The notes under the pieces were generated by a model that was given only the letters and a program-made list of their open reading frames with translations, ran no database searches and had not been told where the DNA came from. The position numbers and the translations under genes were made by a program. Shown here in pieces: positions 6,024 to 64,000 of a stretch of 64,000 bases of DNA. Source of the DNA: Methanoregula sp. (GTDB lineage: Archaea > Halobacteriota > Methanomicrobia > Methanomicrobiales > Methanospirillaceae); assembly GCF_028679125.1 (NCBI RefSeq), contig NZ_JAJRCG010000003.1, positions 1 to 64,000 of the forward strand, given 5' to 3'. The number at the start of each line of letters is the position of its first letter. Within the stretch, counting starts at the first letter, position 1.

Positions 6024-7117
6024 TGGATTATTCTCCGTCGATTAAGGAACTTTCCCATTTTCCCTTTTTAAAAAAAGCCCAGGATCATGCCCGGGGCCGT
6101 TTTAGTTCACTTGATTCCCTGCTTTCTGATGCGCGGGGCCAGGCCCTTGTTGACCGCGCCCTTGACCGGCTGCAGGATGCAATAACGCCGAAGAAGACAT
6201 TTACTCCGGACGTGACCGGGACTCCTGAAGAAGAGATCGCTGCGTATGCCATGGCCCGGATAATTGTCTCGTGCGTCAACGATCGCCAGCTCATTGACCG
6301 GCTGACCCGGTACGAGGCGGAACGGGCATATTATTTCCTTGTCCGCGAAGAAGACTGGAATTCAAATTACCAGCAGGAAGATGGTGAATATTCCCGGCTC
6401 TGCGTTGCGCTGGCTGCCGAACTCGGCATCCGGATCACGCAGGACCGGATGCCGCTGGTCGATTATGTTGAACTCGTGGCACCCCTGCACGAGGACCGGT
6501 TCCACCTGGTGAACCGCAGGATTGAAAAAGGATTTGTCGCGATCCGGAAGGATGAGCGGTATGAACTGGTGCGGGAGCGTGTCCGGCTTCTCCTCCGGCG
6601 CGATCTCCCGCACAAAGTACCTGCCGCGCTCTGCGAACAACTCTCGCCCCGGGTTGCCGCGCTGAAGAAGGCATACCAGGAACAGATGCTCCAGCAGTTC
6701 GGCTCAATCGAAGAGAGTGCGTTCCCGCCCTGCATGCAGGCATTGATCACGGCACTCACGGCCGGCACCAACCTGACCCATGCAGGCCGGTTCTCCCTGA
6801 CCTCATTCCTTCATACGATCGGTATGGATCTGAACGGGATTGCCGCGCTCTATGCCCGGTCGCCGGATTTCAATCCTGACATGACGATGTACCAGGTTGA
6901 GCATATCACCGGGAGGGGCGGATCCGGCACCGAATACACGGCACCTGCCTGTGCTGCCATGCGGACAACCGGGCTGTGCGTGCACCGGGATCTGCTCTGT
7001 GAAAAGGTCAGCCACCCGCTCAGTTACTATAAGGTGAAAAAGCGGGATGCATCAAAGAAGGGCCCAAAAAAAGCGGAAAATAACCCTGATGGGACTCCCC
7101 CGGCATCGCCCGCGTGA
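6023..7117 (+). CDS. priL: DNA primase large subunit
   Basis: The regulatory, iron-sulfur subunit of the archaeal/eukaryal-type primase, about 364 residues. The C-terminal domain carries four conserved cysteines (FPPC, APAC, TGLC and DLLC) expected to bind a 4Fe-4S cluster, followed by the usual HPLSYY segment. ATG 6023 overlaps the pcn stop; a TTG at 6020 is the only alternative start. A Lys-rich tail (KKGPKKAENN) closes the protein. No small subunit (priS) is in the window. Confidence 0.93.
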   Translation: MDYSPSIKELSHFPFLKKAQDHARGRFSSLDSLLSDARGQALVDRALDRLQDAITPKKTFTPDVTGTPEEEIAAYAMARIIVSCVNDRQLIDRLTRYEAERAYYFLVREEDWNSNYQQEDGEYSRLCVALAAELGIRITQDRMPLVDYVELVAPLHEDRFHLVNRRIEKGFVAIRKDERYELVRERVRLLLRRDLPHKVPAALCEQLSPRVAALKKAYQEQMLQQFGSIEESAFPPCMQALITALTAGTNLTHAGRFSLTSFLHTIGMDLNGIAALYARSPDFNPDMTMYQVEHITGRGGSGTEYTAPACAAMRTTGLCVHRDLLCEKVSHPLSYYKVKKRDASKKGPKKAENNPDGTPPASPA

Positions 7118-7122
7118 TGTTA

Positions 7123-7299
7123 TTATACGATTTTATCGTTCACGAGATATCCTGCACCGGACAGGAAGATCGTAAAGCCGATAATTGCCGCAATATAGGC
7201 AATCGCTGCCGGCAATGCCATCGGGAGAACCGCAAGGAGTACGATAAGGATGATGAAGGCGATGAGGCCGATGACCACATCAAGGAGTCGCGCGTCCAT
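7123..7299 (-). CDS. Small membrane protein, 58 aa
   Basis: A short frame opposite the end of priL. It starts with MDARLLDVVIGLIAF and ends with GYLVNDKIV. Two hydrophobic helices (about residues 7-27 and 30-52) separated by a Pro-containing turn make it a small integral membrane protein. No family or function recognised. The matching plus-strand frame has a composition typical of an antisense shadow, which supports this strand. Confidence 0.6.
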   Translation of the reverse strand: MDARLLDVVIGLIAFIILIVLLAVLPMALPAAIAYIAAIIGFTIFLSGAGYLVNDKIV

Positions 7300-7397
7300 T
7301 CATACTCTTTTCGACACCGGAGAATATAGGCTTATCCAACATTCAGGTCTTCGGTGGTATAAAAACGCGTATATCCTGACAAGGTAAATCCACCGGT

Positions 7398-7949
7398 ATG
7401 GATCGGGCTGCGGCAATCTCTGTCATAACAACGTACATCCATGACGAACATCTTGTCCGGCACTGCCTTGCCACCGGTGCCATCATGAAGCATGCAGCCC
7501 GGCATCTTCACGAGAATGAGGCACGCTGGGAGCGGATCGGGATCCTGCATGATATCGATTTCGAGCAGATCGGCGGGGACATGCAGCGGCATGGCGTCAC
7601 CGGTGCAGAAATCCTTCTCCGGCACGGTACCAGCGCGGACGAGACGGAGATCATCCGGCGGCATAACCACCTGCTCCACAAGGGAACGTATACAGAACCG
7701 GTTGAGGTGGTGCTCCAGGCTGCCGACAGTCTCTCGGGGCTCATCATCGCCTGCGGGCTGGTGAAAGGCGGGAACCTTTCCGATGTTTCCGTAAAGACAA
7801 TAACAAAGAAAGCAAAAGAGAAATCATTTGCTGCCGGCTGCGACCGGGACCGGATTGCGCTGGTTGATCCGGTTATCGGCAGCCCGGAATTTTATGGCAT
7901 CGGGCTTGCGGGGCTCATGGAGATCCGGGAGGAACTGGGGCTGAAATAA
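7398..7949 (+). CDS. HD-domain phosphohydrolase-like protein
   Basis: A 183-residue HD-superfamily protein. The diagnostic pair is in GILHDIDFEQIG, with further candidate metal ligands in the N-terminal HDEHLVRHC helix and in RRHNHLLHK; a late Asp lies in AADSLSG. Such small HD proteins hydrolyse phosphate esters or nucleotides with divalent metals; the substrate cannot be told. A TATA box (TATAAAA, about 7359) lies 35-40 bases before the ATG, so the leader should be short. Confidence 0.8.
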   Translation: MDRAAAISVITTYIHDEHLVRHCLATGAIMKHAARHLHENEARWERIGILHDIDFEQIGGDMQRHGVTGAEILLRHGTSADETEIIRRHNHLLHKGTYTEPVEVVLQAADSLSGLIIACGLVKGGNLSDVSVKTITKKAKEKSFAAGCDRDRIALVDPVIGSPEFYGIGLAGLMEIREELGLK

Positions 7950-56199: not shown

Positions 56200-56244
56200 G
56201 TTTCAAAATTTGTTTCAAAAACTGATTTTTACAAAAGAGCCTAT
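56200..56244 (+). promoter_or_regulatory. Stress promoter block upstream of the chaperone unit
   Basis: GTTTCAAAATTTG, then TGATTTTT at +23 and AAAGAGCCTAT at +34. The same three blocks with identical spacing occur at 61083-61127 before sod (36 of 45 bases agree). The last block overlaps a TATA-like stretch about 70 bases before ATG 56314. Confidence 0.6.
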
Positions 56245-56313
56245 TATATCGCTCCATCAATTCCACATCAGGTGAGATCGATTTCTGTTGATAACCATGC
56301 CGGCGGGTTGTTT

Positions 56314-56508
56314 ATGACCGGCGAGATCCTGGACAAGATCTGGAGTAATTTTCGTATGGGGAAAGGTATTGCCCAGAAGGGACTCTTCACCGAAATCCCC
56401 GCGTACGGGACACCGTGTCCGGCATATGGCTGCAACCATTGTGATCATCAGGAATGTATCTATGTTGATTTCCTGCGGCTTTACTGGAATCATCCGAGGT
56501 GTGACTGA
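56314..56508 (+). CDS. Small Cys-containing hypothetical protein, 64 aa
   Basis: Starts MTGEILDKIWSNFRMGKG and ends TPCPAYGCNHCDHQECIYVDFLRLYWNHPRCD. Six cysteines and several His suggest a zinc- or iron-binding site. ATG 56314 lies 70 bases from the shared promoter block, similar to sod. grpE begins about 50 bases later, so it may be part of the chaperone transcript. No family recognised. Confidence 0.5.
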   Translation: MTGEILDKIWSNFRMGKGIAQKGLFTEIPAYGTPCPAYGCNHCDHQECIYVDFLRLYWNHPRCD

Positions 56509-56556
56509 TCATGTCTGCATCCGGAAAAGCACATGTACCGGAAAGGGGGTGATCGT

Positions 56557-57045
56557 GTGGAAGATATTGAGGTCCTGAAAAAAGAACTCGAAGTTCAGAC
56601 CCGCCAGGCCGAAGATCGTCTCAACCAGCTGAAGTATCTCCAGGCAGATTTCGACAATTTCCGCAAGTGGTACGAAAAAGAGAAGGGTGTGATTACCACC
56701 TTAGCGAACGAGCAACTGATCAAAGATCTCCTGGTAATTCTCGATGATTTCGAACGGGCGCTACCCGCGATCGAACAGGAGAAGAACAAGGAGGGGATGC
56801 AGATGGTCTATAATAACCTCCAAAAAATCCTCTCCGGTTACGGGCTTGAACCGATCGAATGCATTGGCAAAAAATTCGACCCGAATTCTCACGAGGCCCT
56901 CTGCATGGAGCGGTGCGGTGAGGAGACAGGTACGGTTCTTGAGGATCTCGGGAAAGGATACCGGTTGAAATCGAAGGTCATCCGGCCATCGAAAGTAAAG
57001 ATTGCAGAACACGTTATGGATGATACAGGTGAGGACAATGGGTAA
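56557..57045 (+). CDS. grpE: Nucleotide exchange factor GrpE
   Basis: About 162 residues. An N-terminal coiled coil ([39 protein letters not shown]) leads to the wing domain ending [19 protein letters not shown]. It releases ADP from DnaK. GTG 56557 is chosen because GGGGGTGATC just before it is a strong ribosome binding site. The end overlaps dnaK by 8 bases. Confidence 0.9.
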
Positions 57046-58930
57046 GGAAAAAATTATCGGGATCGATTTGGGGACATCGAACAGCGAGGCTGCGGTCATG
57101 GTCGGGGGAAAACCAACGATCATCCCGTCCGCGGAAGGAGCAACCGTTGCCGGGAAAATGTTTCCCTCGTACGTAGCGTTTACCTCGGATGGCCAGCTGC
57201 TTGTCGGGGAGCCGGCCCGGCGGCAGTCCGTAACGAATCCTGAGGGGACCGTAACAGCGGCCAAACGGAAGATCGGGACCTCGCACGTGTATAAAATCTA
57301 CAACAAGGAGTACACGCCGCAACAGATCTCGGCATTCCTCCTGCAGAAGATCAAGCGGGACGCGGAAGCGTTTCTTGGCGAAACCGTGACGAAGGCAGTC
57401 ATTACAGTCCCTGCGTATTTCAATGACAACCAGCGGACAGCAACGAAAGATGCCGGAAAGATCGCCGGCCTTGATGTAGTCCGGCTCGTGAACGAACCCA
57501 CGGCGGCTTCGATGGCGTACGGTCTTGATCGCGGCGGGGAATACAAGATCCTGGTCTTCGATCTCGGTGGCGGAACTCTCGATGTGACGATCATGGAATT
57601 CGGCGGCGGTACATTCACCGTCCTCGCCACGTCCGGTGACAGCCAGCTGGGCGGCACGGACATGGATAATGCCATTTACGAATGGATTGCATCGGAATTC
57701 AAAAAGACGGATGGCATTGATCTCCGGAGCGACAAGATGGCGGTCAACCGGGTAAAAGAAGCTGCTGAAAAAGCAAAGATCGAACTCTCGACCGTCATGG
57801 AGACCGAGATCAACCTGCCCTATGTATCCGCCACGCAGGCAGGCCCCAAACACCTGTCCATAAAGATGAGCCGGGCAAAACTCGAACAGCTGATCGAACC
57901 GATCATCAAACGGTGTATCACCCCCTTCGAGACCGCATTAAAGGATGCTAACCTGACCAAGAACGATATCCAGAAAGTGATCCTTGTCGGCGGACCCACC
58001 CGCATGCCGGTGGTCCAGAAGTTCATTGAGGACCATGTCGGCAAAAAGATGGAACGCGGCATCGACCCCATGGAATGCGTTGCCATGGGAGCTGCGATCC
58101 AGGGCGCGATCCTTGGCGGCGAAATTACGGACATGGTGCTGCTCGATGTCACCCCACTTACCCTGGGTCTTGAAACTCTTGGGGGCGTACGGACTGCATT
58201 GATCGACAGGAATACCACCATTCCTACCCGGAAGAGCCAGACATTCTCAACCGCCGCAGACATGCAGACCTCGGTCACTATCCATGTGCTCCAGGGCGAA
58301 CGCCCGATGGCTGCCGACAACGTGAGCCTCGGCCAGTTCAACCTTGTCGGGCTGCCCCCTGCCCCCCGGGGGATCCCGCAGATCGATGTCACCTTTGATA
58401 TCGATGCTTCCGGTATCCTCAATGTATCGGCAAAGGATCTCGGTACCGGCAAAGAGCAGAAGATGACCATCACCGCATCGACAAAGCTTGCCGACAGCGA
58501 TGTGAAGAAGATGGTCAGCGATGCCAAACAGTACGAGGAGCAGGACAAGGCGCGCAAGGAAGAGGTGGAAGCGCGCAATGCCGCCGATTCCCTGGTATAC
58601 TCCGCGGAGAAGACAAAAACCGATCTCGCGGATAAACTGAATCCGGATATGATTGACCGGCTGAACGGGGCGATCACCGGCGTCAAGGCCGCACTGGGAG
58701 GAACGGATACTGCAAAACTCAAATCAGAAACGGAGAAACTCCAGAAGGTTCTTGGAGAAGCCGGATCCGCTGCATACCAGCAGGCAGCCCAGCGCCAGGC
58801 AGAATCGCAGACACAGAAGCAGGCCGGGCCGCAGGCATCTGATTCGGGCGGAGAACCCGGTGGAGACTCAAGTGGACCGGGTGGCGAGAATGTTGTCGAT
58901 GCCGATTTCAAAGTCCACGATGAAAAATAA
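57038..58930 (+). CDS. dnaK: Chaperone DnaK (Hsp70)
   Basis: A 630-residue Hsp70. The ATPase domain starts [15 protein letters not shown], with [17 protein letters not shown] and [11 protein letters not shown]; a substrate-binding domain and a helical lid follow, ending in a Gly/Ser/Gln-rich tail and [15 protein letters not shown] 57038 has GGTGAGGAC upstream. Methanogens with dnaK acquired it from bacteria; the grpE-dnaK-dnaJ order here is bacterial. Confidence 0.96.
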
Positions 58931-58947: not shown

Positions 58948-60009
58948 ATGACAAAGGCCGACTATTATGAAACTCTTGGCGTAAAACGGGATGCATCGCC
59001 GGATGATCTGAAAAAGGCATTCCGGCACCTTGCACGGAAATATCACCCGGATCTCAACAAGGGGAGCAAGGAAGCAGAAGAAAAATTCAAGGAGATCAAC
59101 GAGGCGTACCAGGTCCTGGGCGATCCCACAAAAAAGGCCCAGTACGACCAGGTGGGACACGCTGAGTTCAAACCCGGGGATGCTGCCAGTTACCAGCCTC
59201 CCAGTTATGACGATCTTTTCCGGGATTTCGGGTTGGGCGATATTTTCGATGCCTTTTCCGGCGGATCCCGGAGAGTACGACAGCGGGCGGGAGCCGATCT
59301 CCGGTATGATATCGGGATCTCATTGTCTGACGCGTTCTCCGGCACGAAAAATACCGTGGCAATTCCGCATAATTATGAATGCAGTTCCTGCCATGGAACC
59401 GGAGCTGAACCCGGGTACCTGCGGGACTGTCCCAGCTGCAAGGGGACCGGTGAGATCCGGCAACCCCAGCGGATAGGCAACCGCCAGATGATGAACATTG
59501 CCCAGTGCCCGGACTGCGGCGGGAGCGGGAAGCGGATCGAGAAAGCCTGCAGTACCTGTTTGGGAAAAGGTGCACTAGAGAAAACGCGGAGAATAGAAGT
59601 AACCATCCCCCCGGGCGTTGCCGATGGCCAGTTCCTGAGAATTTCCGGTGAAGGAGAGCCCGGGGAGAACCGGGGTCCACCGGGTGATCTCTATGTTGTC
59701 GTGCATGTAAAACCGCACGAGCGGTTCGTCCGGCAGGGTGCTGACCTGCACACAACCGCTGTTGTCGGGCTTGCAACCGCTCTGCTCGGCGGGGAAATCA
59801 GCGTGCATACCCTGACAGGCAGCGCCGCCCTGAATATTCCCCGTGGCACCCAGAGCCATACCCTCTTCCGGCTCCGGGGACAGGGAATGTCCTGTATCAA
59901 TTCCGACAAACGGGGCGATCTCCTGGTGAAGGTGATCGTGAAGATCCCCGCAAGCCTGACCAAAAAACAGGAAGACCTGATAACCGAGACTTTCGTGGGC
60001 GGAACCTGA
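58948..60009 (+). CDS. dnaJ: Chaperone DnaJ (Hsp40)
   Basis: A 353-residue type I DnaJ. The J domain contains HPD in [12 protein letters not shown], a short Gly-poor linker replaces the long G/F region, and four zinc-binding units are [24 protein letters not shown] and CSTCLGKG. Substrate-binding strands follow. It stimulates DnaK ATPase and delivers clients. It starts 17 bases after dnaK and ends the operon. Confidence 0.94.
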
Positions 60010-61205
60010 TCAAGGCTCCGTACCGGAAAACGCGAGGATTTCCTGGATGAAGAATCGAAATGGATCATCTGCACGGACCGTATTGCCGATTAAAAAGGCG
60101 ATGTGGTTCCGGCAATTCATTATGGCATGAGTCCGGACGTTCCTATTGAGATGCTCATGACACGGACCTCCGAAGTCCAGGCCGGTATGATCCGGTTCAC
60201 CATGGGACCTGGCAGCTCTTCTCCTGGCGGGAGGTGGGATTCAGTGAGTGACGTGTGGAACGAATCGCTGGACACGTTCGAAAACGTACTCGCACTGGCA
60301 ATGTATAAAATTAAACCACGAACCGCAACAGATTGATCCTCCTTTTTTGTTTTGTGAACTGCCGGGATCTCGTGCTCTCGAACTCATGAGGTTGTTGACT
60401 GTGATGAAGTTCCAAAAATTTTCAGCATGCGAGCCAACTCCCCCCAAATCCTCCTTCCCCTCCGAACTGCCGCCACGGGCAGGCAGTTCTTCCTGCGGGG
60501 GGTTCCGTATCCCGGGCTCTCCGTCGGAGAACGCCCCCTCTGGGAGATGAGCGTCTGGCAGGATGATCGATAGTTCAAATCAGGCTTCTTTTACCAAACG
60601 AAGGTCATTTTGGCCTTTTCATTGTGGGGCCACTCTTCACGGGATCCCATGCCCTGGGGGAATTCGCACAAAAACCAGAATTTTGGCTCCGGAAAGCGAT
60701 GCTTATTCGGGTTTTTCACGTCGGACCAGGAAATTTCGCTAATAGAACCCTTTTATTTTGATCGGAGGGTCTTTTGCATGGTACCGTAAGTGCCCGGAGA
60801 AGAAGGGCGATCTTCCGGATCAACTGATCCCTCCCCTCATCAGGACCTCTCCGGGACACAGCGGAGCAGCAGGGTCTTTTCAGGGAGATGATTCGTCCCG
60901 GATCCGTCGCGGGGCGCCCCGCGGAGGGTGGCGGCGTTCATCGCAACCGGGGGTTTGGGGCATGAGTCCCCATCCAGGGTCACTGAATTTTTTTTGCAGG
61001 AATTTTATCTACACATCGTTAGCGATACGTTGTTTAAAATTTCCACAACAGGTTCCCGGTCAGAAAACCCAAGGTACTTTTCGTTTCAAATTTTGCTTCA
61101 TAGTTTGATTTTTGAGAAAGAGCCTATACCTTCGTGTGGTGCAGTTTCCTGCATGCGAGGAACCTGCCGTTACCGGTGGTTCCTCAGTTTCATGAGGAGA
61201 AAACC
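60010..61205. other. Long non-coding region between dnaJ and sod
   Basis: About 1.2 kb. A 69-residue frame (from 60127) and others lack family features. Structured pieces: GAACTGCC/GGCAGTTC inverted around 60460-60490, the 14-base palindrome GCGGGGCGCCCCGC near 60910, and GGGG-catgagt-CCCC near 60958 with a T-run after. An untranslated RNA is possible. The sod promoter block is at 61083-61127. Confidence 0.5.
61083..61127 (+). promoter_or_regulatory. Stress promoter block upstream of sod
   Basis: GTTTCAAATTTTG, TGATTTTT (+23) and AAAGAGCCTAT (+34), collinear with 56200-56244. It ends 79 bases before the superoxide dismutase ATG. Confidence 0.6.
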
Positions 61206-61823
61206 ATGGACGACAACAAATTTTATTCCTTGCCAAAACTGCCGTACGAATACACGGCCCTGGCACCCCAGATCTCTGAAGAACAGCTCAAGCTTCACCA
61301 CCAGAAACATCACCAGGCATATGTCACCGGTGCAAATGCCGTGCTGGAAAAAATCGATAAGGCACGGAAAGAGAACGCCGATATTGACATGAAGGCAACC
61401 TTAAAGGAACTCTCGTTCCACATCGGAGGATTCCGACTTCACAATCTCTTCTGGGAAAATCTCGCCCCTTCAGGAAAAGGCGGCGGCGGGGCTCCGAAAG
61501 GCGAACTGGCCAAAGCGATCACGAGTGAATTTTCAACATTCGACCGTTTCAAAAAGGAGTTCACCCAGGCTGCGGCCAGTGCTGAAGGTTCCGGGTGGGC
61601 AGCCCTGACCTTCTGCCGGAAGACAAAACGGCCTCTCATCATGCAGATAGAAAAACACAATGTGAACGTGATTCCCGGTTTTGGCATCCTGATGGTACTC
61701 GACGTGTGGGAACACGCGTACTATCTTGACTACCGGAATGACCGGGTAAAATTCGTCAATACATTCTGGGATATCGTGAACTGGGATGTTGTTGCACAGC
61801 GGTTCGACACATGGAGGAAATGA
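61206..61823 (+). CDS. sod: Superoxide dismutase (Fe/Mn type)
   Basis: A 205-residue Fe/Mn-family enzyme converting superoxide to O2 and H2O2. N-terminal [15 protein letters not shown]; metal-ligand His in [11 protein letters not shown]; a helix His in [13 protein letters not shown]; Asp and His of the C-terminal site in [16 protein letters not shown] 61206 ([10 protein letters not shown]) follows GAGGAGAAAACC. It leads a unit with encapsulin genes and has no encapsulin targeting tail (ends DTWRK), so it is probably cytosolic. Confidence 0.94.
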
Positions 61824-61861
61824 TCCCCGGCCGGGATAAAGAATTAAATGGAGTGTAAAAA

Positions 61862-62218
61862 ATGCCAGAATTTGTTAACCCGTTCAGCGGGATGGTACCG
61901 GAACGTAAAATGACCATGGAAGAACTGATCCGGGCAGTCCGCCTCGATGTTGCCGCGGAACTTGAAGCGATCCATGGTTACATGGCCCACGCCGATGCAA
62001 CGGACAATCCCCTTGCCAAGGCGGTATTTATCGATATCGCGAATGAAGAACGGGTCCACGTCGGCGAACTCAACCGGCTTCTCTCGATCCTTACCGGTAA
62101 CGAGGATGAATACATGAAGAAGGGAACCCTCGAGGTCGACACCATGGCCGCATCGCTGGCCCAGAAACCCCCGCAGGCCGCGGGCGAGACAACCATCGGA
62201 TCCTTAAAACAATCCTAG
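61862..62218 (+). CDS. Encapsulated ferritin-like cargo protein
   Basis: A 118-residue protein of the encapsulated-ferritin type. Helices carry AAELEAIHGYMAH and DIANEERVHVGELNRLL; candidate ferroxidase ligands are Glu33/Glu35, Glu62/Glu63 and His66, needing dimers to complete the site. The C-terminus is a Pro/Ala linker and TTIGSLKQS, matching the encapsulin cargo-loading peptide (L/I-G-S-L-K). It lies 11 bases upstream of the shell gene. It should oxidise and store iron inside the shell. Confidence 0.88.
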   Translation: MPEFVNPFSGMVPERKMTMEELIRAVRLDVAAELEAIHGYMAHADATDNPLAKAVFIDIANEERVHVGELNRLLSILTGNEDEYMKKGTLEVDTMAASLAQKPPQAAGETTIGSLKQS

Positions 62219-62228
62219 GAGGAAAAAA

Positions 62229-63017
62229 ATGGAAAAATCATACATGGGACGAGAAGACGCTCCCTTAAGCGCTGAAACCTGGAAACAACTCGATGCCGCG
62301 ATGATTGAATCGGCAAAGAGCCAGCTTTCAGGACGCCGGTTAATTGGTATCGAAGGTCCGTTCGGCTTTGGGCTCAAGGTCGTACCGCTCAGCGACTGCG
62401 AGATCGCTGAGGGGATCACGAGCAGCCCGTTTATTCCGGTAAACCTGGTAACGAGCACGTTCTTCCTCAACAAGCGGGATCTTGCCGCAAGCGAGAAAAA
62501 CGGGCTGCTCCTGGATCTGGACCCGGTTGCCGCTGCTGCAATGACCTGCGCCCGTAAAGAGGATGGTATCATCTTCTCCGGAATCCAGGACACTCCCGGT
62601 CTCCTGGGTGCTGAAGGATCGAGTTCCATGCCCCTGTCAAAATGGGATAAGGTCGGCTCTGCAGCAGATCAGCTCATCAATGCCGTGACGCTGCTGGACG
62701 ATGCAGGCTTCCACGGCCCGTACTGCCTGGGGCTTGCCCCAGCCCAGTACAACCTTCTCCTGCGCCGCTATCCCCAGGGCGAGGGTACCGAACTCGATCA
62801 TGTCCGGACCATCATCGGAGGCGATGTCATCAAGGCCCCGGTCCTGAAAAAAGGAGGCGTCATGCTTGCATCCGGCCGCCAGTACTGTTCGCTCGTAGTC
62901 GGCCAGGACATGAGTATCGGGTTTAACGGTCCGGCCGGGGATGCATTTGAATTCAGTATCTCCGAGAGTATTGCGCTTCTCATCCGGGCGCCGGAAGCGA
63001 TCTGCGTCCTTACCTGA
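62229..63017 (+). CDS. enc: Encapsulin shell protein (family 1)
   Basis: A 262-residue HK97-fold nanocompartment protein of the linocin/CFP29 type. N-terminal LSAETWKQLDAAMIESAKSQLSGRRLIGIEGPFGFG, DVIKAPVLKKGGVMLASG and the end SESIALLIRAPEAICVLT are diagnostic; length is as expected for a T=1 shell. It directly follows its ferritin-like cargo, so the pair builds an iron-storing, oxidative-stress-protective compartment. Preceded by AGGAGG. Confidence 0.93.
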   Translation: MEKSYMGREDAPLSAETWKQLDAAMIESAKSQLSGRRLIGIEGPFGFGLKVVPLSDCEIAEGITSSPFIPVNLVTSTFFLNKRDLAASEKNGLLLDLDPVAAAAMTCARKEDGIIFSGIQDTPGLLGAEGSSSMPLSKWDKVGSAADQLINAVTLLDDAGFHGPYCLGLAPAQYNLLLRRYPQGEGTELDHVRTIIGGDVIKAPVLKKGGVMLASGRQYCSLVVGQDMSIGFNGPAGDAFEFSISESIALLIRAPEAICVLT

Positions 63018-63038
63018 ACTGGCAAATGAATGTGAGTG

Positions 63039-63401
63039 ATGAAGAAAACCATGCAGAAAAAAACAGAAGAACTCCTGAAAAAATTTGAGCGGGACCACGA
63101 GGTCTATGTCAGTGCAACAGAAGAACCGACTGCCTGGACCGTATATGCCCGGATTCCCAGGAGTCATGCCCCCGGGACCCACCACCTCCATGTTGGAAGA
63201 AAATATCTGTCGGGGCCAAACGAGCACGGCACGGTCCGGATCCTGCGTGACCCGGTCAGTGGCGATGCATACAGCACAGAATCCTGGGGGCCCATGGCAT
63301 TGATTGATGATTTTGTGGAAAAAGCGCTCGACCACATTCTTGAAGAGAAGAATGCGATGGACCATGGAAAGGAGGCGGCGTGCGGACCCAGCTGTATCTG
63401 A
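63039..63401 (+). CDS. Hypothetical protein, 120 aa
   Basis: A soluble protein, KKTMQKKTEELLKKFERDHEVYVSATEEPTAWTVYARIPRSHAPGTHHLHVG..., ending in Cys-containing ACGPSCI. No family recognised. It starts 21 bases after the encapsulin gene and has no cargo-loading tail, but its position suggests a link to the compartment. ATG 63039 is preferred to a GTG three bases earlier. Confidence 0.62.
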   Translation: MKKTMQKKTEELLKKFERDHEVYVSATEEPTAWTVYARIPRSHAPGTHHLHVGRKYLSGPNEHGTVRILRDPVSGDAYSTESWGPMALIDDFVEKALDHILEEKNAMDHGKEAACGPSCI

Positions 63402-63420
63402 TGGGATCCCATACCTGCGA

Positions 63421-63666
63421 ATGATCATGAAACCGTTACCCCCCTCATCAAAGATCGTACTTAAAATCCTTGGCAAAGAAGGTGCACTGACTCACAAGGA
63501 TATTGTGAAAAAATCCCATTGTTCTCCGCGAACCGTGCGCTTTGCCCTGAGACGACTCAAGGAAAATGAATTGATCATTGAGAAACTGAACATGCGGGAC
63601 ATGCGCCAGATCATTTACCAGGACCGGAGCATTCCGGTCCGGCAGGATATTCTGGCAGAGATCTGA
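63421..63666 (+). CDS. Winged-helix DNA-binding protein, 81 aa
   Basis: MIMKPLPPSSKIVLKILGKEGALTHKDIVKKSHCSPRTVRFALRRLKENELIIEKLNMRDMRQIIYQ: a compact MarR/ArsR-like winged helix with recognition helix SPRTVRFALRRL. It lies 19 bases after the previous gene and may regulate the sod-encapsulin unit. A single Cys (SHC) before the recognition helix could be a redox switch; this is inference. Confidence 0.72.
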   Translation: MIMKPLPPSSKIVLKILGKEGALTHKDIVKKSHCSPRTVRFALRRLKENELIIEKLNMRDMRQIIYQDRSIPVRQDILAEI

Positions 63667-63756
63667 CCGGAACATTCCGGCCGGAAAAAACGCTGATGGA
63701 TACATCGTGCGTTCCGTACCGACAAAGAGAGCCAATAACAATGAACGTGATACCTT

Positions 63757-64000
63757 ATGCCACCCCATTGCGATACACGAGACGGCCCCGTAGTTAAGGC
63801 AGCGGTACAAGCGCTGGATACGGGAAACCTCAATTATCTGTTGATCTGGATTCCCCAGGAATCCGAAAAAGAACTCAAAAGTATCTTTGCAAAAACCTTA
63901 AAGGCAAGAAAAGCCGGGAAGGATGCAAAAGAAGTTGCAGATGACTGGTTCTTCGAGAATGCCATCCGGCTCCACCGTGCCGGGGAAGGTGCGTCCTATA
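63757..64000 (+). CDS. DUF6448 family protein, 3' cut by window end
   Basis: Starts MPPHCDTRDGPVVKAAVQALDTGNLNYLLIWIPQESEKELKSIF and continues through ADDWFFENAIRLHRAGEGASY before the window ends. The HCDT-x-DGPV start and HRAGEGA segment match the DUF6448 family, also seen as a possible encapsulin-associated or metal-binding protein. About 81 residues are visible; the rest is missing. Confidence 0.78.
   Translation, partial: MPPHCDTRDGPVVKAAVQALDTGNLNYLLIWIPQESEKELKSIFAKTLKARKAGKDAKEVADDWFFENAIRLHRAGEGASY

What the first reader, a model, noticed from the sequence alone, without database searches (positions are those of the whole stretch)
61206..64000. Encapsulin nanocompartment with ferritin-like cargo in a methanogen, downstream of SOD
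Seen: encapsulin (62229-63017) directly after a ferritin-like protein with C-terminal TTIGSLKQS, the cargo-loading signature; SOD upstream; an unknown protein, a winged-helix regulator and DUF6448 protein downstream, all on one strand with gaps under 100 bases. Inference: an oxidative-stress/iron module where SOD and iron sequestration are co-regulated; the downstream proteins may be new accessory factors.
Basis: partly seen in the sequence, partly recalled or inferred. Interest (0 to 1): 0.75.

Follow-up and report, generated by a model that had tools for sequence, protein, structure and literature searches.

The report
Methanogen iron nanocompartment in stress operon
A methane-making archaeon carries an ordinary iron-storing protein shell and its cargo in one gene block with superoxide dismutase, an unknown small protein and a DNA-binding protein, behind a DNA element that also precedes its DnaK chaperone genes, which suggests that oxygen, iron and protein-damage defences are controlled together.

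Summary
SOD, an EncB-type cargo (C-terminal TTIGSLKQS) and a family 1 encapsulin are followed by an orphan protein (U1), a small winged-helix protein (WH) and DUF6448 on one strand. The shell/cargo pair is ordinary: cargo directly precedes shell in 50 of 50 encapsulin loci examined. The block SOD-cargo-shell-U1-WH is a Methanoregula feature; scars in two relatives show cargo and shell lost from it. New: a tandem element (TTTCAnnnTTTGTTTCA) lies 39 bp before a TATA-like box upstream of SOD and, at the same spacing, upstream of grpE-dnaK-dnaJ in this window. A matrix trained on SOD promoters gives 24-36 bits for 9 of 21 stress-type grpE promoters (2 more at 14-18) and at most 10.4 for 35 canonical ones. 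I read the locus as the oxygen/iron arm of a stress regulon, with WH as candidate regulator (not shown). U1 was found only in Methanoregulaceae, nearly always with an encapsulin and often beside SOD; its function is unknown. The parts are known kinds; operon, element and regulon link look new, pending expression and binding data.

The parts
56201..56225 (+). Tandem element before the grpE-dnaK-dnaJ operon (TTTCAAAATTTGTTTCAAAAACTGA)
   Evidence: Exact pattern match; 32.2 bits with the matrix trained on SOD promoters
56240..56249 (+). TATA-like box, 39 bp after the start of the element
   Evidence: Read from the sequence; function inferred
56272..56508 (+). Small Cys-rich 78-aa ORF at the head of the chaperone operon
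   Evidence: ORF; no Pfam family; a homologue follows the same element in G171 and G174
56533..57045 (+). GrpE, stress-type paralogue
   Evidence: Pfam GrpE 133.6 bits; tree of paralogues
57038..58930 (+). DnaK (HSP70)
   Evidence: Pfam HSP70 725 bits, scanned from 57041
58948..60009 (+). DnaJ
   Evidence: Pfam DnaJ domains
61084..61108 (+). Tandem element before SOD (TTTCAAATTTTGCTTCATAGTTTGA)
   Evidence: Conserved in 14 of 14 aligned SOD upstream regions of the block, this one included; 3 sites in the window against 0.04 expected
61123..61130 (+). TATA-like box CCTATACC, 39 bp after the start of the element
   Evidence: function inferred
61206..61823 (+). Fe/Mn superoxide dismutase
   Evidence: Pfam Sod_Fe_N and Sod_Fe_C
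61862..62218 (+). EncB-type ferritin-like cargo; by position E33, Y40, E63 and H66 match the described ferroxidase residues
   Evidence: EncB_fam over cut-off; solved relatives 7s8t, 5n5e, 7s5c; E-Y-ExxH in 51 of 51 cargos
62192..62209 (+). Codons of the loading motif TIGSLK
   Evidence: Only match of the back-translated motif in the own assembly; motif in 50 of 51 cargos
62229..63017 (+). Family 1 encapsulin shell protein
   Evidence: encap_f1 and Linocin_M18 over cut-off; solved EncA-type relatives
63051..63401 (+). U1, orphan protein, predicted helix-five strands-helix with a Cys tail
   Evidence: No family over cut-off; found in 25 of 232 genomes of the order; model pLDDT 82
63427..63666 (+). 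WH, small winged-helix protein, candidate regulator
   Evidence: HTH_24 over cut-off; follows U1 in 14 of 50 encapsulin loci
63757..64000 (+). DUF6448 protein, cut by the window end (to 64314)
   Evidence: Pfam DUF6448; beside the block in 4 of 50 encapsulin loci

Best explanation
The locus is a stress operon of Methanoregula that joins superoxide removal to iron sequestration. SOD turns superoxide into H2O2 and O2. The EncB-type cargo, held inside a family 1 encapsulin shell by its TIGSLK tail, oxidises Fe(II), which is stored as mineral in the shell; this removes iron that would react with H2O2. U1 is an accessory of unknown action that travels with SOD and encapsulin. WH, encoded last, probably reads the tandem TTTCAnnnTTTG element before SOD (autoregulation) and before the stress-type grpE-dnaK-dnaJ operon, so that chaperones and the SOD/iron module respond together. 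Shown by sequence: families, gene order and its conservation, loading peptide, ferroxidase residues, shared element, deletion scars. Inferred: loading, iron storage, co-transcription, the signal, and that WH is the binder.
For: Family scores; cargo before shell in 50 of 50 loci and the SOD-cargo-shell-U1-WH order in 11 of 18 Methanoregula encapsulin genomes; loading motif in 50 of 51 cargos and once in the own genome; ferroxidase pattern in 51 of 51. Element in 14 of 14 SOD promoters of the block (found there, so no test by itself). Tests: 3 window sites against 0.04 expected; 9 of 21 stress-type grpE promoters at 24-36 bits and 2 at 14-18, against 0 of 35 canonical grpE promoters above 10.4; 19 of 20 SOD genes outside the block at most 8.0 bits; same 39-bp spacing to a TATA-like box at both window sites. 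Scars of cargo and shell in G174 and of cargo in G161 show loss from an older intact block.
Against: No expression, binding or loading data. 10 of 21 stress-type grpE promoters have no element within about 700 bases, among them genomes with a block-type WH (G158, G160, G183, G192, also G168, G174). One SOD outside the block (second copy of G158) scores 16.9. 5 of 18 Methanoregula encapsulin genomes have the pair apart from SOD, U1 and WH, and in the other genera SOD is not beside it. WH has paralogues in most genomes, so another paralogue could be the binder.
Confidence: 0.62

Rival explanations
1. Ordinary encapsulated ferritin whose neighbours are incidental: the cargo-shell pair works alone as an iron store, and its place in an SOD operon is lineage-specific gene order without functional meaning.
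For: The pair stands without SOD in 39 of 50 encapsulin loci fetched. In other genera its neighbours look like housekeeping genes, such as a helicase-like gene (cluster 3, name by eye). The pair moved elsewhere in one Methanoregula clade.
Against: The order is kept across the Methanoregula clade with short gaps, one conserved promoter element serves the block, and where SOD is missing (G181, G185) the element stands directly before the cargo.
Confidence: 0.25
2. U1 belongs to SOD rather than to the encapsulin: for example an SOD metal-loading or stabilising factor that met the encapsulin only by sharing the operon.
For: U1 is near SOD without an encapsulin in between in G147 (SOD-U1-WH-DUF6448), in G220 and G226 (about 1.1 kb after SOD; G226 shows SOD-rubredoxin-DUF488-U1), and in G174 with only a shell remnant. 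Its tail often ends in a Cys pair.
Against: Across genomes U1 tracks the encapsulin (23 of 24 genomes; 23 of 25 with the wider model) better than SOD; independent pairs in the genus: U1 with encapsulin 5.7 of 6 on average, p 0.03, with SOD p 0.5. Most genomes with SOD have no U1. The Cys tail is missing in several distant copies.
Confidence: 0.4
3. The element is a strong basal promoter or a site for another regulator, not for WH; the chaperone and SOD operons share a promoter class and not a stress regulon.
For: The element stands at a fixed distance from a TATA-like box, and paralogues of WH or other regulators are present in nearly all genomes. Several block-type WH genomes lack it before stress-type grpE.
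Against: It is rare in the own genome (5 sites with at most one mismatch), absent from canonical grpE promoters (0 of 35) and from 19 of 20 other SOD promoters above 8 bits, which does not fit a general promoter part.
Confidence: 0.4

Closest known systems
Family 1 (classical) encapsulin with Flp/EncFtn cargo (Myxococcus xanthus EncA/B/C; Rhodospirillum and Haliangium EncFtn)
   Same: Shell family, separate cargo gene directly before the shell, C-terminal loading peptide, ferroxidase residue pattern (roles from passages of PMC11202242)
   Different: Here the pair lies in an SOD-U1-WH block behind a shared stress element; an EncD-like reductase cargo was not found by the exact loading motif
Archaeal Flp-fusion encapsulins (Pyrococcus furiosus)
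   Same: Ferritin-like cargo in an archaeon; the cargo matches 5n5e and 2e0z
   Different: There the cargo domain is fused to the shell (PMC8346489 passages); here it is a separate protein with a tail
Phr heat-shock regulon of Pyrococcus
   Same: Small set of stress genes under one archaeal regulator and a promoter-proximal site
   Different: Phr sites are palindromic (PMC10746257 passages); this element is a direct repeat
MsvR redox regulator of methanogens
   Same: Winged-helix similarity, 22 bits
   Different: WH is 79 aa and far below the 220-bit cut-off of MsvR

Membership tests
Family 1 encapsulin | Shell protein over the family cut-off | tested here: met
   encap_f1 228.6 bits against 100; Linocin_M18 231.6 against 24.3
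Family 1 encapsulin | Cargo gene beside the shell gene with a loading peptide | tested here: met
   Window, and 50 of 50 loci for adjacency, 50 of 51 cargos for the motif
Family 1 encapsulin | Self-assembly into an icosahedral HK97-fold shell that holds the cargo | not testable with these tools
   No structure of the shell was predicted; assembly and loading need experiments
EncFtn/EncB-type cargo | Member of the EncB cargo subfamily | tested here: met
   NF058679 128.7 bits against 90; the narrower TIGR04535 model is matched below its cut-off (83.2 against 125)
EncFtn/EncB-type cargo | Ferroxidase residues E, Y, E and H | tested here: met
   E-Y-ExxH pattern in 51 of 51 cargos; roles from PMC11202242 passages, the Tyr recalled
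EncFtn/EncB-type cargo | Decamer with ferroxidase activity | not testable with these tools
   Needs protein
Fe/Mn superoxide dismutase | Both Pfam domains over cut-off | tested here: met
   Sod_Fe_N 104.2, Sod_Fe_C 115.7 bits
MsvR regulator | MsvR model over its cut-off | tested here: not met
   22 bits against 220
Phr regulon | Palindromic operator | tested here: not met
   The element is a direct repeat TTTCAnnnTTTG-TTTCA; Phr palindrome from PMC10746257 passages
U1 to any known fold family | Structural match well above background | tested here: inconclusive

The most novel reading that the evidence does not exclude
Methanoregula has a stress regulon defined by a tandem 12-bp TTTCAnnnTYTG element, read by the small winged-helix protein encoded in the SOD-encapsulin operon, which turns on the DnaK chaperone operon and an iron-sequestering nanocompartment together with SOD; U1 is a new shell- or SOD-associated factor specific to these methanogens.
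Probability: 0.35. Interest if true: 0.68.

Novelty: new variant of a known kind. Interest (0 to 1): 0.5.

Why it matters
Wetland methanogens meet oxygen, and how they survive it is an open matter. An operon that ties SOD to an iron nanocompartment, behind an element shared with a DnaK operon, gives a concrete regulon to test; the one search made for a methanogen heat-shock regulator listed two papers, neither on this group by its title and abstract. It also suggests a use for encapsulins in a strict anaerobe and adds a new small protein family (U1) to assay.

Tried and rejected
Second cargo: the back-translated TIGSLK motif was searched in the own assembly and matches the cargo gene alone (exact motif only, assembly 94% complete), so SOD, U1 and WH are not cargos by this motif. 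U1 as a known family: Pfam, NCBIfam and PHROGs gave nothing over cut-off or credible, nor did the PDB sequence search (best E 0.04); fold searches gave middling, mutually unrelated matches (actin capping protein, Csm1, RWD, HPF), not used. U1 outside the family: 392 genomes drawn from the phylum gave one doubtful partial match (G250, E 5e-4, with a stop), rejected. A viral scan with the wide U1 alignment could not run. The third window site (55428, minus strand, one mismatch) overlaps a 15-bit matrix hit and I saw no convincing gene behind it in that orientation; dropped. RNA families: two tRNAs in the window and nothing else over threshold. Retention of WH as evidence that it binds the element was set aside as biased, because G160, G161, G177 and G183 were chosen by their WH. 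Of 28 exact element sites in the genus I place 13 before the block or what is left of it, 5 before stress-type grpE, 1 before an Hsp20 gene (G162), 1 before a homologue of the small Cys-rich ORF (G174) and 1 before a DUF2769 gene (G161); 7 remain unplaced.
Full report
OBSERVATION. The genes are as described. SOD, EncB-type cargo, family 1 encapsulin, U1, WH and DUF6448 follow each other on the + strand with gaps of 38, 10, 33, 25 and 90 bases. The window is the first 64 kb of a 213-kb contig; DUF6448 continues to 64314. The ten U1 relatives with record titles come from Methanoregula, Methanoregulaceae or Methanomicrobiales MAGs; I therefore call the unnamed genus g1 Methanoregula, an inference.

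THE CORE IS ORDINARY. Of 232 genomes of the order, 53 have an encapsulin match and 50 pass the cut-off. I fetched the loci of these 50, and of the three weak genomes G219 and G037 but not G142. In each of the 50 the cargo gene directly precedes the shell. 51 cargos were collected, the 50 plus that of G219; 50 carry the loading motif near the C-terminus, most often as TIGSLK (35), and 51 of 51 carry the E-Y-ExxH pattern. The nearest solved relatives are Myxococcus EncC and EncB and the Pyrococcus cargo domain, and EncA-type shells. The residue roles come from passages of PMC11202242. The exact loading motif occurs once in the own assembly. In G219 the shell gene is broken and the cargo stops before the motif, a remnant of which lies behind the stop. 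Flp cargos in archaea were already reported (PMC8346489, passages).

THE OPERON. SOD stands before the pair in 11 of 50 loci, U1 and WH behind it in 14 of 50, DUF6448 in 4 of 50 (some loci are cut by contig ends). The 11 SOD loci and 13 of the 14 U1-WH loci are Methanoregula; the fourteenth is G136 of a neighbouring genus. Methanoregula has 18 encapsulin genomes among 39; in five of the 18 (G158, G168, G172, G174, G189) the pair is apart from SOD, U1 and WH. On the encapsulin tree Methanoregula and G136 form one clade (support 100/99), as expected for mainly vertical descent. Scars: in G174 a cargo start runs into a shell end between SOD and U1; in G161 a cargo start remains between SOD and WH. 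So cargo and shell were lost from an older SOD-cargo-shell-U1-WH block at least twice. Other states are SOD-U1-WH-DUF6448 without encapsulin in G147 and element-cargo-shell-U1-WH without SOD in G181 and G185.

U1. 23 of the 24 have an encapsulin (Fisher 7e-17 over the order, not corrected for descent; 17/0/1/21 within the genus); the 25th, G228, has a U1 fragment, no encapsulin and 64% completeness. On a tree of RpoB from 33 of the 39 genus genomes, six supported independent pairs differ in encapsulin and U1 goes the same way in 5.7 of 6 on average (median p 0.03, range 0.03-0.06); SOD does not (median p 0.5). Linkage explains part of this. Copies on another contig or at least 40 kb from the encapsulin, in G158, G168, G189, G157, G131, G230, G220 and G226, are not explained by adjacency. 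Against an exclusive tie to the shell, U1 sits near SOD without an encapsulin between them in G147, G220 and G226. The model (pLDDT 82) is helix, five strands, helix, with a low-confidence tail that in most close relatives holds a CGxxC-like pair. Fold searches gave no confident match.

THE ELEMENT. Aligning 14 SOD upstream regions of the block (13 Methanoregula and G147) and the WH upstream region of G183 showed a conserved TTTCAnnnTTTGTTTCA followed by a TATA-like box. In the window it occurs three times with at most one mismatch against 0.04 expected in shuffles; in the own genome five times against 0 in the reversed control; in the order 49 exact sites in 36 of 232 genomes against 2 in the control, 28 of them in 18 Methanoregula genomes (control 1). 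The two strong window sites, before SOD and before grpE-dnaK-dnaJ (33.0 and 32.2 bits; the next best in the window 15.7), both start 39 bp before a CCTAT box.

HELD-OUT TEST. A matrix made from the 14 SOD sites was run on promoters of grpE. All 39 genus genomes have grpE, 58 matches; 57 stretches were examined, one gave no GrpE hit, 56 were scored. They fall into a canonical type (35, one of them an outlier) and a divergent stress type (21, one clade). 24-36 bits were reached by 9 of 21 stress-type promoters and 14-18 by two more; no canonical promoter exceeds 10.4. The largest maximum from shuffled stretches was 18.6, so the two weaker ones are unsafe, and the cut at 14 was chosen after seeing the scores. 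Five of the nine strong sites were already known from the exact pattern search. Fisher for 11/21 against 0/35 is 2e-6, not corrected for descent. Second control: 20 SOD genes outside the block (19 of the genus, one of G157) were fetched: 19 score at most 8.0 and one, a second copy in G158, 16.9; two of them had short upstream stretches. G136 has a 30-bit site 222 bases before its cargo start, the best of its whole locus, and G220 a 26-bit site before SOD.

WH. It is a 79-aa winged-helix protein (HTH_24 over cut-off), well below the MsvR cut-off. Its family has a member in 210 of 232 genomes; six such copies inspected stand apart from the stress genes, most beside another HTH gene. The WH of the block is the nearest candidate for reading the element, but six genomes with such a WH (G158, G160, G168, G174, G183, G192) have no element before stress-type grpE, and nothing here tests binding.

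MECHANISM. Established for the families: SOD makes H2O2 (recalled); [quoted passage not shown] Inferred: joint expression removes both superoxide and the iron that would turn H2O2 into hydroxyl radical, and joint control with DnaK adds protein repair.

LITERATURE. Searches of the held open-access library for encapsulin with methanogen, with SOD and archaea, with Methanosarcina, with heat shock and archaeon, for Methanoregula with SOD, and for DUF6448 listed no paper that by title or abstract describes an SOD-encapsulin operon or an encapsulin in a heat-shock regulon. I saw passages of PMC8346489, PMC11202242, PMC10746257 and PMC12542729, and only listings with starts of abstracts of the rest. 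Subscription papers and supplements were not searched.

VERDICT. Known shell and cargo in a new operon setting, with a shared stress element that makes a regulon testable.

Noticed in passing
L084 (G219), cargo at 6453-6764, minus strand: The encapsulin gene is broken by several frameshifts or stops and the neighbouring cargo ends before its loading motif, whose remnant lies behind the stop: shell and loading tail decay together.
   Followed up: partly
L036 (G191), 7206-7823, minus strand: The SOD gene of an otherwise intact block has an internal stop (TGA), a pseudogene or a sequence error.
   Followed up: no
window 56272-56508: A 78-aa Cys-rich ORF without Pfam family stands between the element and grpE; homologues follow the element in G171 and G174.
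   Followed up: no
L141 (G226) 3-2043: SOD, rubredoxin, DUF488 and U1 in a row, another SOD neighbourhood for U1 in a different genus.
   Followed up: partly
L216 (G161), 1501-2012: A DUF2769 Cys-rich gene follows the same tandem element; a possible further regulon member.
   Followed up: no
Methanoregula genomes, grpE loci L231-L287: Many genomes have two grpE genes, one canonical and one divergent stress-type clade that in several genomes lies within about 10 kb of the SOD-encapsulin block.
   Followed up: partly
L040, L046, L049, L055 (G174, G158, G172, G168): One Methanoregula clade keeps the cargo-shell pair at another site with its own shared neighbours, while G174 retains a cargo/shell remnant at the old site.
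   Followed up: partly
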